The notes beneath the pieces were generated by a model that saw only the letters and a program-made list of their open reading frames with translations, was not told the DNA's origin and made no database searches. A stretch of DNA of 64,000 nucleotides from Burkholderiales bacterium. Lineage in GTDB: Bacteria; Pseudomonadota; Gammaproteobacteria; Burkholderiales; Burkholderiaceae_D. The translations under genes and the position numbers were made by a program. Of the stretch, positions 14,393 through 21,733 are shown piece by piece. The first letter of the stretch is position 1, and each line of letters starts with the position of its first letter. The DNA is taken from positions 53,102 to 117,101 of the forward strand of contig JACOUL010000010.1 of assembly GCA_016177875.1 (NCBI GenBank), written 5' to 3'.

Positions 14393-15082
14393 TCACAGAT
14401 CCACAATCACGCGCACGCGGCGATTGACTTCATCTTCCGGACGATTCGGATCGGCAAGCTCGCTTGAGCCCTTGCCTGTTGCCTTGATCTTCGCGTTCGG
14501 AATGCCGTGGCGCGTAATCAAATAATTGCGAGAGGACTGCGCGCGTTTGAGTGATAGCGCTTGATTATAGGTAGCGCTGCCTTTAGCGTCGGCATGGCCT
14601 TCAAGCGTCACTGCGCGGGCGGTCGCCAGCTTATCGGACTTGAGTGCTGCCGCAAGCTGGTCCAACACGTCTTTGCCGTCGCTGCTCAGTTGGTCTGAGT
14701 TGAATTGAAATTTGATTTCCAAGTCAAGAGCGCGACTTTGTGGGCGGTGTGGTGCTGCTGCCTGCGCGTGAGCCTGTGGTTGAGCTTGCGGCCTGGGCAA
14801 CGGGGCCGGCGCGGCAACTTGTTGCACAGCTTCTTGCTGGACGGAAGAGGGGGCGGACGAATCGGCGGCAGGCTCGCGATTTAAAGAAAGTCCCCTGGTT
14901 CTTACAGGTCTTGTCGGCGAATCGGCGGTGTCAGGCGTTAAGGCATTGAGAATCTGGTCGCTGCTCGGTTTGCCGCGCAAAGATTTGACTTCCTGAGCCC
15001 CGACATTGCCGGCTAGGGAGACTGCGATTGCCGCCGTAAACACAGCTAAGTTTCTACGAACCCGAACAACATTGGCGTGCAT
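14393..15082 (-). CDS. OmpA-family protein (peptidoglycan-binding C-terminal domain)
   Basis: A 229-residue exported protein. A signal peptide (cut near NVGAQ, residue 30) is followed by a Pro/Ala/Gln-rich linker (about 85-115) and an OmpA-like domain (about 120-229). The domain has IKFQFNSDQL, the motif TLEGHADAKGSATYNQALSLKRA, and a C-terminal RRVRVIVDL. This domain binds diaminopimelate in peptidoglycan. There is no beta-barrel or lipobox, so it is probably periplasmic. It is transcribed divergently from the curli-like locus and could belong to the same envelope function, though nothing proves it. Confidence 0.85.
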   Translation of the reverse strand: MHANVVRVRRNLAVFTAAIAVSLAGNVGAQEVKSLRGKPSSDQILNALTPDTADSPTRPVRTRGLSLNREPAADSSAPSSVQQEAVQQVAAPAPLPRPQAQPQAHAQAAAPHRPQSRALDLEIKFQFNSDQLSSDGKDVLDQLAAALKSDKLATARAVTLEGHADAKGSATYNQALSLKRAQSSRNYLITRHGIPNAKIKATGKGSSELADPNRPEDEVNRRVRVIVDL

Positions 15083-15366: not shown

Positions 15367-15900
15367 ATGAAGTTGTCGCACAAACTGATTGCCATCGCTA
15401 TCGCTACCACTCTGTCTGGCGCTGTATATGCTCAATCTCAGTCTAAGGTCAGTGCTGATGATCTGAAGCAAAATCAATCCGGCATGTTGAATTCCCAGCA
15501 AATGGATCTGGGCAATGCAAAAGCGGGTGGCAAGTCCAACGTGAGCGCGAAGAATATTACCCAGAATCAATCTGGTATGTTGAACAAACAAAGCGCTTCC
15601 ATCGGTAACGCTTCTGGCAAAAACAGCGAATCCAAAGTGACGGTCGGTGACGTTAAGCAAAACCAATCCGGTATGCTGAACAATCAGAAATTGGCAATCG
15701 GCGACGCATCCAACGGCGGCAAGTCCAAAGTGAACGTCAAGAAGGTCTCGCAGAAGCAATCCGGTATGCTGAACAATCAGCAAGCTGCTATCGGTAACGC
15801 AGCCAACGGCGGCAAGTCCAACGTCAATCTGAAGAACGTGGACCAAAACCAATCCGGTATGCTGAACAACCAAAAAGCTAACGTAGGCAACGCACAGTAA
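15367..15900 (+). CDS. Secreted curlin-like tandem-repeat protein A
   Basis: A 177-residue protein with a signal peptide cut after VYA (residue 22). The rest is five repeats of 31-32 residues, the last one shortened. Unit pattern: S-N/K-V-x5-Q-x-Q-S-G-M-L-N-x-Q-x3-I/L-G-N/D-A, then a Gly/Lys-rich turn. The Q-x-G-x-x-N core is that of curlin repeats (S-x5-Q-x-G-x-x-N-x-A-x3-Q), but the unit is longer than the 22 residues of CsgA. A beta-solenoid, amyloid-prone fibre subunit is inferred. A terminator follows directly and a CsgG-like gene lies downstream. There are no cysteines. Confidence 0.75.
   Translation: MKLSHKLIAIAIATTLSGAVYAQSQSKVSADDLKQNQSGMLNSQQMDLGNAKAGGKSNVSAKNITQNQSGMLNKQSASIGNASGKNSESKVTVGDVKQNQSGMLNNQKLAIGDASNGGKSKVNVKKVSQKQSGMLNNQQAAIGNAANGGKSNVNLKNVDQNQSGMLNNQKANVGNAQ
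15442..15897 (+). repeat. Five tandem coding repeats (93-96 bp each) in repeat protein A
   Basis: Each unit encodes S-[NK]-V...Q-x-Q-S-G-M-L-N-x-Q...I-G-[ND]-A. CAATCCGGTATGCTGAACAA recurs nearly unchanged, so copy number could vary by recombination. Confidence 0.85.
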
Positions 15901-15919
15901 TTCGTCGTTGGTCCGATAT

Positions 15920-15957
15920 ACGGGGCCGTTGGCCCCGTATTTTTCTGTTTTTTTGTA
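15920..15957 (+). terminator. Rho-independent terminator after repeat gene A
   Basis: ACGGGGCC-GTT-GGCCCCGT forms an 8-bp GC-rich stem, followed by ATTTTTCTGTTTTTTTG. It would let the first subunit be made in excess of the downstream accessory genes through partial read-through. Confidence 0.85.
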
Positions 15958-15971
15958 TTGCTTGGGTCGCC

Positions 15972-16307
15972 ATGAGAAAAGCCCTTTCTTATCTTGCCGG
16001 CTTTGCAGCCGTTTTCTCCTTCGCCGCGGCATTTGCCGCTCCTCCCACTGTCGATCCTGAAGGGCAGAATCTGGACGTAGATCTTTCCGCGAAAATCGCC
16101 AAAGAAAAGTCCAAGGCCAAGAAGGTTGCGGCGCAGAGCAATAGCGATGATTCAGGCAGCAGTAGCAGTAGTAGTTCCGGCTGCGGAACGGTGAACATCA
16201 ACAGCAGCGACTCTAAAAAAAGCAACAGCGGTATCAAAGACATCATGGGTAAACAGACGACAACGATCGTCACCGGACCCGTCATCAACATGGCCAGCTG
16301 TAAGTAA
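15972..16307 (+). CDS. Small Ser-rich secreted protein of the curli-like locus, unknown function
   Basis: A 111-residue protein with a signal peptide cut after AFA (about residue 22). The mature part begins APPTVDPEGQNLDVDLS, has a Lys/Glu-rich helix, then a Ser-rich stretch (SSSSSSSG) and two cysteines (in GCGTVNI and at the C-terminal SCK) that could form a disulfide. It lies between subunit gene A and the CsgG-like gene, where curli operons encode small accessory proteins. No similarity to CsgE or CsgF is visible to me; a chaperone, nucleator or pore partner is possible. Confidence 0.65.
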   Translation: MRKALSYLAGFAAVFSFAAAFAAPPTVDPEGQNLDVDLSAKIAKEKSKAKKVAAQSNSDDSGSSSSSSSGCGTVNINSSDSKKSNSGIKDIMGKQTTTIVTGPVINMASCK

Positions 16308-16346
16308 GGCGGCGCTCCAGATTTGGAATGACAGAAGAGATCAAGC

Positions 16347-17894
16347 ATGAAACGTAAAGCAGCAACCCTGGCGTGCGGCCTAACACTTGCGCTCACCGCT
16401 TGCGTGACAACCGAAGAGTCGGTTCGCAAAGAAGCCAAAGAAGTGACCACGACGCTGCGCGCCGGTCCCGAACAGGCGCCGCTCAAGACGATTACCAACT
16501 TTTCTTCCGGTCTGCGCTGCATGGACAATATGTTCCTCATGTACGGCGTGCGCGACTTGGTCGTGATCAGCGAAGATTTGAGCGATAACACCAAAAAGGT
16601 CTCTGCCGGCACGCGCGACATGTTGTTCTCCGCCGTTTCGGAAATGACCAAGCGTAGTAAAGCAGTGCGCCTGATTGCTTACGGTTCCGACAGCAGCAAC
16701 TTGGTTAGCTTCATGAAAGAAGCTGAAAAGAAAAACTTATTCCAGTTGACGCCGAAATACGGTATTCGCGGTTCCATTACGCAACTGGATGAAAACGTCG
16801 CCAAGAAAACCGAAGGCGGCGGCATATCCATCGGCGAATTCGGCATCGGCCGCGCAGCGACGGCGGCAACGACTATCCTCGGATTAGATCTAACGATGAT
16901 GAGCACCGAAGACTTGTCGATTTTGCCGGGCGTTTCCTCGACCAACTCCGTTGCGATTTTTAAATCCGGTAGCGGCGTAGAAGGCGAGGCCGGCTACAGT
17001 AAGTTCGGCATCAACTATCAAGCCAACTTGTCTCGCTCGGAAGGCACGGCACAGGCATTGCGTAACTTGGTTGAATTGTCTGTCATCGAATTGTTCGGCA
17101 AGTTAACCAAGACGCCGTATTGGGTCTGCTTGGGTGCGAACAGTCAATCGGAAACGGTCAAGAATGAAATCGCCGACTGGTATTCCGGTATGTACAGCGA
17201 CGGCGAGATCGTCTCGTATTGGCAGCAGCAGATGCGCATTCGCGGCGTGTATTCGGGCGAAGTGAACGGTCAAAACGATGATGCCTTGATCGAAGCCATT
17301 ACCGCCTACCGCGAAGCGATGGGTTTGTCGAAGAGCGCGGTAGTCGACCTGAACTTCTTCACTGCCTATCTGGATGCGAATCACTATGACGTCGCACCGA
17401 AGGCGCGGGAAAAACTCGCCGCGAATCGTTCGGCGAAAACAACTGCGCTAGCCGCGAACGATACGACGCCGGTCAAGTTAACGGTCGGATCCCACAAAGG
17501 CGGCAATCAATTCACCCGAGGCGAAAAGCTGACGGTCAAAGTGTCGACCAATCGCGACGCGTATGTCTACTGCTTCATGCAGGACGAGACCAAGAAGATC
17601 GCACGTTTCTTCCCGAATCGCTTTTCCAAGGATGCCTTGGTGAGCGCCAAGAAAGGCTTGCAGATTCCTAAAGGGCAGGAGTTCAGCATCAATGCCAACA
17701 GCAAAGGCGTGAACGAACAAATCATGTGCTTTGGCACAGGCAAAGATGTGTATGCCGACGTGTTGCCGGTAATCGGTGGCGGCGATATCGATGTGCCGAC
17801 CCAAGTGCAGTCGTTTGCGGAAATCAAATCGGCATTTGAAAAGGCGGCGGGTCCGGCCTTGGGTGTCGGCAGCTTTACTTTGAACGTTCGGTAG
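16347..17894 (+). CDS. CsgG-like outer-membrane secretion lipoprotein with PG-binding-like and DUF4384 domains
   Basis: A 515-residue lipoprotein: lipobox LTAC at Cys19. Residues about 50-265 follow CsgG: GIRGSITQLDEN, GGISIGEFGIG, VAIFKSGSGVEGEAGYSKFG, and then ALRNLVELSVIELFGKL as the closing helix. CsgG forms the nonameric pore that exports curli subunits. Residues 285-345 resemble a peptidoglycan-binding_1 module (RIRGVYSGEVNGQNDDALIEA). Residues 375-470 resemble DUF4384 (NRDAYVYCFMQDE, ARFFPNRF). Canonical CsgG (about 277 residues) lacks both extra domains. It lies centrally between two repeat-protein genes. HfaB-type anchors of Caulobacter are related alternatives. Confidence 0.78.
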   Translation: MKRKAATLACGLTLALTACVTTEESVRKEAKEVTTTLRAGPEQAPLKTITNFSSGLRCMDNMFLMYGVRDLVVISEDLSDNTKKVSAGTRDMLFSAVSEMTKRSKAVRLIAYGSDSSNLVSFMKEAEKKNLFQLTPKYGIRGSITQLDENVAKKTEGGGISIGEFGIGRAATAATTILGLDLTMMSTEDLSILPGVSSTNSVAIFKSGSGVEGEAGYSKFGINYQANLSRSEGTAQALRNLVELSVIELFGKLTKTPYWVCLGANSQSETVKNEIADWYSGMYSDGEIVSYWQQQMRIRGVYSGEVNGQNDDALIEAITAYREAMGLSKSAVVDLNFFTAYLDANHYDVAPKAREKLAANRSAKTTALAANDTTPVKLTVGSHKGGNQFTRGEKLTVKVSTNRDAYVYCFMQDETKKIARFFPNRFSKDALVSAKKGLQIPKGQEFSINANSKGVNEQIMCFGTGKDVYADVLPVIGGGDIDVPTQVQSFAEIKSAFEKAAGPALGVGSFTLNVR

Positions 17895-17901
17895 GAATAG
17901 C

Positions 17902-18273
17902 ATGCGAAGTATTTTGTCTATTATGTTTGCAGTGGCCGGCGCGGTCGCGCTGCCGGCGATTGCAGGTACGGAACTGAATGCCAATGCCGCGGCGGCTAGT
18001 ACGGCTACCGGCGCTAAAGGCGTCGCCTTAGTGCCGCCGCCGAGCAATATGGGAGCGGTAGCGCCCTCCGAGCAAGCATCTACGGTGCGCGGGACAAAGC
18101 GGGTCGGCCAGACTTTACGCTGCTGGCAGCATGGCAGGCTTCTCTATGAAGGCACCGGGTTTCGAGCGGATGCGGAAAAGCGGCCCAATGCTGTGACGAT
18201 GCAGCGCACGGATGGCGAATCCGTTGTGGTATATGACCAGAAGGATTCCATCTGCATCCTGTCGAACAAATAA
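17902..18273 (+). CDS. Small secreted protein of the curli-like locus, unknown function
   Basis: A 123-residue protein with a signal peptide cut after AIAG (about residue 22). An Ala-rich N-terminal region precedes a compact C-terminal part with TLRCWQHGRLLYEGTGF and DSICILSNK. The two cysteines could pair. It starts 7 nt after the CsgG-like stop, so it is translated in the same operon. Family not recognised; the C-terminal beta-rich segment might bind the fibre or the pore. Confidence 0.65.
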   Translation: MRSILSIMFAVAGAVALPAIAGTELNANAAAASTATGAKGVALVPPPSNMGAVAPSEQASTVRGTKRVGQTLRCWQHGRLLYEGTGFRADAEKRPNAVTMQRTDGESVVVYDQKDSICILSNK

Positions 18274-18286
18274 AGTGCGGAGCGGT

Positions 18287-18982
18287 ATGAACATCGCGAA
18301 AAAATTTGCAGCCTACACTTGCATGATGGTGGTCGGCTTTGCGTGTATGAGTAAAGCCGCATTTGCCGAGGTGGTGACCCACCAGATGAAAGGTGTATCG
18401 CGTGTTCATTTTAAGCTTCCGGGCGAATTGGATGTGCGTTACGGCACTGAAGAAAAGCTCACCATCGAGGCGCCGGCAAATGTCATCCCCAAGCTCGATG
18501 TCGCCGTTAAAGGCGACATGCTGGTGCTCGGCTCCAAGGGAAGCTTCAAGGCTGAAAAAGAGCTGAAATTCAAATTGACGATCAAGTCGCTGCGTTCCTT
18601 AAAGAGCGACGGCAGCGGCGCGGTCGAGATCGCGAATTTTGCCGGCAACGATATGGACATTGATGCGTCCGGAAGCGGCGGAATGGCGCTGAAAAATCTC
18701 AAACCCGGAAGGCTCGTCGTAGTGATCAAGGGTTCAAGCGACGTATCGGTTTCCGGAAGCGCAAAATCCATCGTCGCGCGGATCGAGGGCAGCGGTTCCA
18801 TCGATGCAGCCGGCTTCCGTACGCAACACGCGGAAGCAACACTGAATGGTTCTGGCGATATCAAGGTTCATGCGGATGAAACACTCAAGGCGGCGATTAA
18901 CGGCGCCGGGAATATCGCTTACAAGGGCAAAGCAAAAGTGACGCAATCCATTAGCGGCGCAGGCAGCGTCGATCGAATTTAA
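18287..18982 (+). CDS. DUF2807 (head GIN domain) exported beta-rich protein
   Basis: A 231-residue protein with a signal peptide (MNIAKKFAAYT..., cut near KAAFA). The mature part is a DUF2807-type repeat of short strands and GSG turns: SDGSGAVEI, DASGSGGMAL, IKGSSDVSVSGSA, RIEGSGSIDAAG, LNGSGDIKV, INGAGNIAYKG and SGAGSVDRI. The family is described as putative autotransporter adhesin. It starts 13 nt after the previous gene and is followed 13 nt later by repeat gene B. A surface or periplasmic partner of the fibre is plausible. The ATG was chosen over a longer frame that overlaps the previous gene. Confidence 0.75.
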   Translation: MNIAKKFAAYTCMMVVGFACMSKAAFAEVVTHQMKGVSRVHFKLPGELDVRYGTEEKLTIEAPANVIPKLDVAVKGDMLVLGSKGSFKAEKELKFKLTIKSLRSLKSDGSGAVEIANFAGNDMDIDASGSGGMALKNLKPGRLVVVIKGSSDVSVSGSAKSIVARIEGSGSIDAAGFRTQHAEATLNGSGDIKVHADETLKAAINGAGNIAYKGKAKVTQSISGAGSVDRI

Positions 18983-18995
18983 TAGGGAGAGAGTG

Positions 18996-19805
18996 ATGAA
19001 AACCATTCGTAAAAGCACGCTTGCTGTCGCGATCGCCGCGTTGTGGATGGCATCGAGCGTGCACGCGCAGTCGCAATCGCAAGTCAAAGCGCAAGACATC
19101 AGCCAAGGCCAGGCCGGCATGCTCAACTCGCAGTCCATGGATTTGGGTAATGCGAAAAACAATGGCAAAGCCAATGTGGAAGTCGGCAATGTGAAGCAAG
19201 GCCAAGCCGGCATGCTGCAGCGGCAGAATATGGCGATCGGTAATGCATCAGGCAACGGCAAGAGCAACGTCAAGGCGGGCACCGTCATACAAGGCCAGGC
19301 CGGTATGTTGAACAATCAGGATATGCAGATTGGTAACGCATCCGGCAATGGTAAGTCCAATGTGCAGGTCGGCGCCGTCGTACAAGGTCAAGCCGGCATG
19401 CTGCAAAATCAGCAAATGAAAGTCGGTAATGCCAGCGGCAATGGTAAGTCGAATGTCAAGGCTGGCGCCGTGGTGCAAGGTCAAGCGGGTATGCTTAACA
19501 ACCAGAAGCTTGAACTGGGCAATGCTTCGGGCAATGGCAAGAGCAATGTCAAGGTTGGCGCAGTCGCGCAAGGCCAGGCCGGCATGCTCAACAACCAGCA
19601 AGCCAAGATCGGCAACGCATCCGGCAATGGCAAATCGAATGTCGTGGTCGGCGCCGTGGTGCAAGGCCAAGCCGGTTTGCTGAACAATCAGCAAGTCAAC
19701 GTCGGCAATGCCTCTTCCGGCAGCTCGAATGTCGTGACCGGCGCCATCGTTCAAGGCCAGGGTGGCATGTTGCAGTCTCAGAAGGTTAACATCGGCAATA
19801 ACTAA
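18996..19805 (+). CDS. Secreted curlin-like tandem-repeat protein B
   Basis: A 269-residue paralogue of protein A: signal peptide ending SSVHA, mature QSQ start as in A, then eight repeats of 31 residues (the last two shorter). Unit pattern: S-N-V-x-x-G-x-V-x-Q-G-Q-A-G-M-L-N-N-Q-x3-I-G-N-A-S-G-N-G-K. It has a strong ribosome site (GGGAGAGAG) and a GTG one codon earlier that could also start. Repeats are closer to one another than those in A, suggesting recent expansion or homogenisation. It may be the nucleator or minor subunit, or the major one; the order A...B differs from csgBA. Confidence 0.75.
   Translation: MKTIRKSTLAVAIAALWMASSVHAQSQSQVKAQDISQGQAGMLNSQSMDLGNAKNNGKANVEVGNVKQGQAGMLQRQNMAIGNASGNGKSNVKAGTVIQGQAGMLNNQDMQIGNASGNGKSNVQVGAVVQGQAGMLQNQQMKVGNASGNGKSNVKAGAVVQGQAGMLNNQKLELGNASGNGKSNVKVGAVAQGQAGMLNNQQAKIGNASGNGKSNVVVGAVVQGQAGLLNNQQVNVGNASSGSSNVVTGAIVQGQGGMLQSQKVNIGNN
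19077..19802 (+). repeat. Eight tandem coding repeats of 93 bp in repeat protein B
   Basis: Eight units with shared GGCCAGGCCGGCATGCT- and GGCAATGGCAAGAGCAATGT-type blocks. Codon variants differ between units, so they are not exact copies. This is a protein-coding repeat rather than CRISPR. Confidence 0.85.
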
Positions 19806-19861: not shown

Positions 19862-21058
19862 ATGTTCCTCCCTAACCAGCCGCAAACTTCCCTCGCAATA
19901 TTTTGTAAGGTCGTCGATAACTATGGCGACATCGGCATTTGCTGGCGTTTGGCAAGACAACTGCAACTGGAACATCGCATTGCCGTCACGCTGTGGGTCG
20001 ACGATTTACGCAGCTTTCAGCGTATCTGCCCAGGCCTTGCGGTTGACGCCGAGGCGCAAGAGTTTGCTGGTGTGACGGTGCGTCATTGGCGCGATCAAGA
20101 AGGCGAATTTTCGACGAGCGAAGTCGCCGACATCGTTATCGAATTTTTTGGATGTGACATTCCCCCGCGCTATGTCGCCGCTATGGCTGAGCGTAGTCCG
20201 CATCCAGTGTGGATCAACCTGGAAGGCTTGAGCGCGGAAGAATGGGTCGAAGGCTGCCATACTCTGCCTTCGCCGCATCCTCGCATGCCCTTGACGAAGT
20301 ATTTTTTCTATCCCGGGTTCACCGGAAAAACCGGCGGCTTGTTGCATGAATCTTCCCTGGAAGAAGAGCGGCGGCAGTTTCAATCCAATCCAGATGCCAT
20401 GCAGGATTTTCTAGCGTGTCTGGGCGTAATGCCGAGCGAGGCAGCATCGTTCAAGATATCTTTGTTTTGCTATCCGCATGCGCCTGTTTCGGCCTTATTC
20501 AAGGCTTGGCAAAATACCGATACTGCCGTGACTTGCCTGGTGCCCGAAGGCGTCGGAGGCGAGGCGGTAAAAGCGTTTCTCGGTACGGAAGCGAAAGTTG
20601 GCATCATGCGTACCCGCGGCGCACTAACTGTGCGCGTCTTGCCCTTTGTTTCGCAACCGGACTACGACAAGTTGTTATGGGCGTGCGATCTCAACTTTGT
20701 GCGCGGCGAGGATTCCTTTGTTCGCGCGCAATGGGCGGACAAACCTTTCATCTGGCACATCTATCCGCAAGATGAAAATTTGCATCATAAGAAATTGCGT
20801 GCATTTTTGACACGCTATGCGGATGGTCTCGAACGTTTGCATGCTTTTTCCTTGTGCTGGAATGGAGTGGCTCTCGAAGGCAACGATGGGATGCCGAATT
20901 GGCCAAGCCTATGGACGCAGTTGCAAGGCGACATTCCAAAAATCGCATTGAAAGCCGTCGAGTGGCGCCATCAAGTGCTGAAAAACGGTGATTTGGCCTC
21001 TAATTTGGTGGCTTTTGCCGATAAGCGTAGGTCAATACCTGAGCAAAACAAGGTATAA
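19862..21058 (+). CDS. earP: Protein-arginine rhamnosyltransferase EarP (EF-P modification)
   Basis: A 398-residue GT-B glycosyltransferase of the DUF2331/EarP family, which attaches rhamnose from dTDP-rhamnose to Arg32 of EF-P. The N-terminal FCKVVDNYGDIGICWRLARQL contains the conserved aspartates of the catalytic region. The C-terminal RGEDSFVRAQWADKPFIWHIY matches the nucleotide-sugar site. It lies just upstream of efp, the usual order. EF-P itself carries Arg32, so the pair should be functional. Confidence 0.93.
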   Translation: MFLPNQPQTSLAIFCKVVDNYGDIGICWRLARQLQLEHRIAVTLWVDDLRSFQRICPGLAVDAEAQEFAGVTVRHWRDQEGEFSTSEVADIVIEFFGCDIPPRYVAAMAERSPHPVWINLEGLSAEEWVEGCHTLPSPHPRMPLTKYFFYPGFTGKTGGLLHESSLEEERRQFQSNPDAMQDFLACLGVMPSEAASFKISLFCYPHAPVSALFKAWQNTDTAVTCLVPEGVGGEAVKAFLGTEAKVGIMRTRGALTVRVLPFVSQPDYDKLLWACDLNFVRGEDSFVRAQWADKPFIWHIYPQDENLHHKKLRAFLTRYADGLERLHAFSLCWNGVALEGNDGMPNWPSLWTQLQGDIPKIALKAVEWRHQVLKNGDLASNLVAFADKRRSIPEQNKV

Positions 21059-21059
21059 T
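21054..21059 (+). promoter_or_regulatory. -10 element of a probable efp promoter
   Basis: TATAAT lies at the end of earP, about 99 bp before the efp start, so efp can be transcribed on its own. The matching -35 is weak (GTCAAT at 17 bp). Confidence 0.45.
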
Positions 21060-21157
21060 ACGCGGTTAATCTTTACGTTGGTAAACGTGAGCTTACGGCG
21101 CTGTTGGCCACGGGGCGACAGACATTTTATGCAACCCATCTTTAACGCAGACTTTTT

Positions 21158-21733
21158 ATGAAATTCGCAAAAGAAATTCGTGTCGGCAACATCATTATGG
21201 TCGACGGCAAGCCTTTTATCGTATTGCGCTCCGACGTCAACGGTTCGAGCCGTACGGGCTTCACATATAAATGGAAGATGAAAAATCTTCTGACGAATTC
21301 GCCTTTGGAAAACGTATTCCGCGGCGACGACAAATTCGACGTGGTGGTTCTCGATAAGAAGCCGGTGACATATTCTTATTTTGCCGACCCGCTGTTTGTA
21401 TTCATGGATGAAGAATACAACCAGTATGAAATCGAGGAAGAAAACCTGGGCGATGCATTGCATTACCTGAAAGAAGGCATGGAGTGCGAAGCCGTTTTTT
21501 ATGACGGTAAAGCGATTTCCGTTGAGTTGCCGATCACCATCGCGCGTAAGATCATTTACTCTGAGCCGGCAGTCAAGGGCAATACATCGGGCAACGTGTT
21601 AAAAGAAGCCAAGATTGAAAATGCCATCGAAGCGAATTGCCACATCGTTCAAGTGCCTTTGTTCGTCAGCCAAGACGATGTGATCGAAATCGATACGCGT
21701 ACTAACGAGTATAAGCGCATCGTTCGCGACTAA
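21158..21733 (+). CDS. efp: Elongation factor P
   Basis: A 191-residue three-domain translation factor that relieves ribosome stalling at polyproline stretches. The N-terminal KOW-like domain has the modification loop GSSRTGF with Arg32, the residue rhamnosylated by EarP; the lysine of the EpmA type is absent. The C-terminal OB domains include [12 protein letters not shown] and [19 protein letters not shown], the closing signature of the family. It is followed by a strong terminator. Confidence 0.96.

What the first reader, a model, noticed from the sequence alone, without database searches (positions are those of the whole stretch)
15367..19805. Curli-like secretion locus with two 31-residue-repeat subunits and a CsgG-like channel
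Six same-strand genes encode repeat protein A, a small secreted protein, a CsgG-like lipoprotein, a second small secreted protein, a DUF2807 protein and repeat protein B. All six have signal peptides or a lipobox. The repeats carry the Q-x-G-x-x-N core of curlin, but the period is 31 and the motif (QSGMLNNQ / QAGMLNNQ then IGNA) is distinctive. No csgD, csgE, csgF or csgB homologue is recognised. From CsgG biology I infer export of an amyloid-like or beta-solenoid surface fibre by a variant pathway.
Basis: partly seen in the sequence, partly recalled or inferred. Interest (0 to 1): 0.88.

Follow-up and report, generated by a model that had tools for sequence, protein, structure and literature searches.

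The report
Second curli-like fibre export locus
This bacterium carries a conserved gene cluster that encodes two repeat proteins predicted to fold into beta-solenoid fibre subunits and a CsgG-like lipoprotein that likely exports them, separate from the ordinary curli genes found elsewhere in the same genome.

The parts
14393..15082 (-). OmpA-family protein (229 aa), divergent; proposed peptidoglycan anchor of the module
   Evidence: Pfam OmpA 77.6 bits, cut-off 27.2; relative near the cassette in 7 of 9 named loci, in L006 and L007 about 4 kb downstream
15367..15900 (+). Repeat protein A (177 aa), five repeats of 31-32 residues; proposed fibre subunit
   Evidence: Spacing 31,32,31,31; no Pfam family at E 1
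15918..15940 (+). G+C-rich hairpin with a T-rich tail between repeat A and S1; possible attenuator
   Evidence: 10 pairs, but the region's terminator-like count (7) equals the shuffled mean (6.7); fold z -3.46; a hairpin at the same place in 4 of 5 other loci folded
15972..16307 (+). S1, small secreted protein (111 aa) with two conserved Cys near the C-terminus; proposed pore-exit factor or nucleator
   Evidence: 46 homologues, none with a Pfam domain; alignment
16347..17894 (+). CsgG-like lipoprotein (515 aa) with PG_binding_1-like and DUF4384 regions; proposed export channel
   Evidence: Pfam; model pLDDT 75.4; CsgG best structural match
17902..18273 (+). S2, small secreted protein (123 aa) with conserved RCWQxGR and two Cys; role unknown
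   Evidence: Alignment; no Pfam family at E 1; relative in 9 of 9 named loci
18287..18982 (+). DUF2807 (head GIN) secreted protein; proposed surface adhesin or tip
   Evidence: 129.9 bits, cut-off 24.2; relative in 9 of 9 named loci
18993..19805 (+). Repeat protein B (270 aa), eight repeats of 30-31 residues; proposed fibre subunit
   Evidence: Spacing; beta-solenoid model pLDDT 85.5, pTM 0.83

Best explanation
The locus likely makes a curli-like surface fibre: the CsgG-like lipoprotein is predicted to form an outer-membrane channel that would export the two 31-residue-repeat proteins, which are predicted to fold into three-strand beta-solenoids and would then stack end to end. Inferred steps: the repeat proteins cross the inner membrane by Sec, stay unfolded in the periplasm, pass the CsgG-type pore and fold outside, one 31-residue turn per layer. 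The peptidoglycan-binding-like and DUF4384 regions fused to the channel, with the OmpA-family partner, would fix the pore to the cell wall and stand in for the periplasmic role of CsgE. S1, with two conserved cysteines around a beta-like stretch, would act at the pore exit as CsgF or CsgB do. Repeats A and B would be major and minor subunits (which is which is not resolved) and the DUF2807 protein a surface adhesin or tip. Shown: the genes, the repeats, the conserved cassette, the co-occurrence and the separate canonical curli locus. Predicted: both folds (only repeat B was modelled; repeat A by its alignment to B). Untested: export, fibres, amyloid character, and the roles of S1, S2 and DUF2807.
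Against: No experiment. Profile searches of PDB with the lipoprotein did not find CsgG, and hhalign to this genome's CsgG gave E 8.5e-4 but only 24% probability. PG_binding_1 is below cut-off in the window protein and matches 13 of 37 homologues. No pore ring was modelled. Near-identical tandem repeats readily give solenoid models, and Foldseek found no PDB match at E 0.001 for repeat B; realigned matches are generic beta-helices, SufB/D ranking above CsgA. The repeats have no aromatic residues, unlike typical amyloid cores (recalled). In 10 of the 18 genomes with the channel gene the repeat profile was not found; some of these have other repeat proteins, but L041 and L042 showed none.
Confidence: 0.7

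Rival explanations
1. The repeat proteins are exported by the channel but stay as short surface adhesins or an anchor complex, as proposed for the Caulobacter holdfast anchor HfaABD, and do not polymerise into fibres.
For: HfaB is CsgG-like and HfaA curlin-like, yet they anchor a polysaccharide (PMC6707917, passages); a DUF2807 adhesin-type gene lies in the operon.
Against: Two high-copy-number repeat proteins with regular turns resemble stacking subunits; no polysaccharide genes were recognised among the genes examined beside the cassette, though the wider window was not annotated for them.
Confidence: 0.15
2. The locus is an ordinary csg operon that has diverged in sequence but keeps the same parts.
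For: CsgG-type channel and the Q-x-G-x-x-N core in each repeat.
Against: Curlin_rpt, CsgE and CsgF profiles hit only contig C51; the turn is 31 residues with three predicted strands; the same genome has a recognisable csg set.
Confidence: 0.08
3. The lipoprotein is a periplasmic outer-membrane lipoprotein with the shared core fold, like PelC, HpaA or LptE, and is not a channel; the repeats stay periplasmic or leave another way.
For: PelC, HpaA and LptE also match the model; the CsgG Pfam score is borderline.
Confidence: 0.06

Closest known systems
Curli / type VIII secretion (CsgA, CsgB, CsgE, CsgF, CsgG)
   Same: CsgG-type lipoprotein channel fold; secreted N/Q-rich repeat proteins with Q-x-G-x-x-N; predicted beta-solenoid
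   Different: 31-residue turn with three predicted strands instead of the two-strand arch averaging 23 +/- 5 residues (PMC10192328, passages; PMC12822426, passages); no Curlin_rpt, CsgE or CsgF here; channel fused to DUF4384 and a PG_binding_1-like region; S1, S2, DUF2807 and OmpA partners
Fap system (FapC)
   Same: Imperfect N/Q-rich repeats, one per cross-beta layer; FapC is Foldseek's second row for repeat B (E 0.11, not significant)
   Different: FapC has five strands per repeat in a Greek-key arch with loops between repeats (PMC12392863, passages) and exits by the trimeric FapF barrel (PMC12822426, passages)
Holdfast anchor HfaABD of Caulobacter
   Same: A CsgG-like protein (HfaB) with a curlin-like partner (HfaA) (PMC6707917, passages)
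   Different: Different gene set and role as described there; sequence comparison not made here
MafA of Neisseria
   Same: An outer-membrane lipoprotein that its authors liken to CsgG and link to protein secretion (PMC7738311, passages)
   Different: Exports a different kind of substrate, according to that paper's title and abstract start; no sequence comparison made here

Membership tests
Curli (type VIII) system | CsgG channel protein | tested here: inconclusive
   Profile borderline: 20.6 bits and 21.8, cut-off 20.8; 15 of 37 homologues match at E 0.01; predicted fold clearly CsgG-like
Curli (type VIII) system | Curlin_rpt (PF07012) in the subunits | tested here: not met
   None in repeat A or B at E 1, nor in B at E 10; genome search hits only C51. 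For the other 20 rows of A2, Curlin_rpt is not among the 25 of 33 families listed
Curli (type VIII) system | Repeat of about 22-23 residues forming a two-strand arch | tested here: not met
   Period 31, three predicted strands
Curli (type VIII) system | CsgE and CsgF at the locus | tested here: not met
   One hit each in the genome, both on C51; a structural analogue such as S1 or S2 is not excluded
Curli (type VIII) system | Subunits form amyloid fibres outside the cell | not testable with these tools
   Needs purified protein and microscopy
DUF2807 (PF10988) | Profile score above the curated cut-off | tested here: met
   129.9 bits, cut-off 24.2
DUF4384 (PF14326) | Profile score above the curated cut-off | tested here: met
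   65 bits, cut-off 27; 37 of 37 homologues at E 0.01
Fap system | FapC-type fold | tested here: inconclusive
   FapC second Foldseek row, E 0.11, probability 0.02
Fap system | FapF-type export barrel | not tested
   No FapF search was made
Holdfast anchor HfaABD | HfaA, HfaB and HfaD relatives together | not tested
   No Hfa sequences were compared; description from PMC6707917 passages

The most novel reading that the evidence does not exclude
This is one member of a separate class of fibre-export systems centred on Burkholderiales. Its fixed core is a wall-tethered CsgG/DUF4384 channel, the S1 exit factor and an OmpA-family anchor. That core works without CsgE or CsgF and accepts interchangeable solenoid subunits whose turn length varies from 31 to about 40 residues, so that fibres of different cross-section leave through one kind of pore, even in cells that also carry true curli genes.
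Probability: 0.42. Interest if true: 0.76.

Novelty: new variant of a known kind. Interest (0 to 1): 0.62.

Why it matters
If true, CsgG-type export is not tied to curlin or to CsgE and CsgF, and one bacterium can run two such systems side by side. It would supply natural fibre subunits with a wider, basic, aromatic-free solenoid, useful for asking how turn length and side-chain ladders set fibre shape, and natural relatives of a pore type of interest for nanopore sensing (PMC13397529, passages). It also gives a testable function for DUF4384 and DUF2807 proteins in this setting.

Full report
Six + strand genes lie at the stated coordinates. Repeat proteins A and B contain 5 and 8 repeats with spacing 31,32,31,31 and 31,31,31,31,31,31,30. 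The typical unit of B reads KSNVxVGAVVQGQAGMLNNQxxxIGNASGNG and includes the curlin core Q-x-G-x-x-N. The mature proteins have no aromatic residue and no cysteine, 30% Gln plus Asn, and computed pI of 10.1 and 10.3, with cleavage sites set by eye. They begin within the first repeat; by eye there is no separate Gly-rich leader such as the N22 region described for CsgA.

The cassette is conserved. A scan of one genome per species found 9 loci. In 8 of 9 the order repeat, S1, CsgG-like, S2, DUF2807, repeat is kept, in one of them (L005) with the first repeat gene cut by the contig end; the ninth contig (L009) begins at the CsgG-like gene and keeps the four genes from there on. An OmpA-family gene is near in 7 of 9, in L006 and L007 about 4 kb downstream; the two without it are short contigs. 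In 399 sampled genomes of the order, the window's own included, 18 carry the CsgG-like gene at E 1e-20 and 8 the repeat profile at E 1e-6; all 8 are among the 18. Random placement would give that with probability 2.9e-12, a figure that ignores kinship. In the class sample 3 of 369 genomes match, one of them the window's own and the other two with the gene in two pieces. Among 60 relatives the gene was found in 3, the window's own included; it was not found in 5 of 5 other same-genus and 30 of 30 other same-family genomes. The system is therefore patchy, which suggests horizontal spread or repeated loss.

The wider family seems to use other repeats. I fetched 18 order loci from 17 genomes. With profiles from the 9 named loci plus a C-terminal motif of my own, S1 was found in 13 of these 18 (7 by profile, 6 by motif only) and in 8 of the 9 named loci. 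OmpA was found in 9 of 18 and 7 of 9, but OmpA is a common domain. Seven of the 18 loci carry repeat proteins found by the 31-residue profile; of these, L036-L038 have a period of 35. By eye, L039, L043, L044, L045 and L050 carry other secreted repeat proteins with periods of about 35-39 near the channel gene; L046 and L049 carry weaker ones of about 39-40. L041 and L042 showed none, and L047 and L048 were not read by eye. L052, a weak CsgG-like hit (E 8.4e-16) and outside the 18, has DUF2807 and OmpA-family neighbours and a short protein with a period of about 51.

Canonical curli genes are separate. On contig C51 the same genome has two Curlin_rpt proteins (83.9 and 83.3 bits), csgG (242.7), csgF (95) and csgE (92.5). 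Genome searches with CsgE, CsgF and Curlin_rpt hit only C51. Two CsgG-type loci therefore coexist, and the window locus has no match to the CsgE or CsgF profiles. CsgD was not searched.

Mechanism, by inference: Sec export, CsgG-type pore, folding outside into a stack of 31-residue layers. The fused wall-binding-like region and the OmpA-family partner would tether the pore. S1 has two conserved cysteines around a beta-like stretch and lies just upstream of the channel gene in most loci where it was found (not in L045), so I propose it as the exit factor. A G+C-rich hairpin after repeat A (15918-15940) has a counterpart at the same place in 4 of 5 other loci folded, not in L011. It stands out over shuffles in three of these five (z -3.46, -3.21, -2.44) and not in L003 and L004 (-0.01, -1.12). 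Terminator-like sites as a whole are no commoner here than in shuffles, and only the window was scanned. If it acts as an attenuator, repeat A would be made in excess. Use of a CsgG-like protein outside curli has precedent in HfaB (PMC6707917, passages), and MafA has been likened to CsgG (PMC7738311, passages).

Verdict: a new variant of CsgG-dependent surface-fibre export, well supported as a gene system and by fold predictions, untested as a fibre.

Noticed in passing
L051 (G000:C51:68000-82000): A canonical curli locus (two Curlin_rpt proteins, csgG, csgF, csgE) in the same genome as the window.
   Followed up: yes
L052 (G050:C6:127000-140000): A shorter CsgG-like gene (373 aa) beside DUF2807, OmpA-family and small secreted genes, one with a period of about 51; it may be a reduced form of the module.
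   Followed up: partly
L050:7281-9392: A 703-residue secreted repeat protein (period 37) directly next to a CsgG-like gene in genome G217.
   Followed up: partly
L007: A contig titled Myxococcaceae bacterium carries a cassette very like the betaproteobacterial one in L006; possibly a misassigned contig or a recent transfer.
   Followed up: no
window 15918-15940: A strong hairpin with a T-rich tail between repeat A and S1; hairpins lie at the same place in 4 of 5 other loci folded.
   Followed up: partly
window 19862-21733: EarP and EF-P genes lie directly downstream; the pair is kept in four same-genus genomes without the fibre cassette in the fetched stretches.
   Followed up: yes
L040:1627-3254: The CsgG-like gene is read in two overlapping frames, so it looks frameshifted or misread in this genome.
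   Followed up: no
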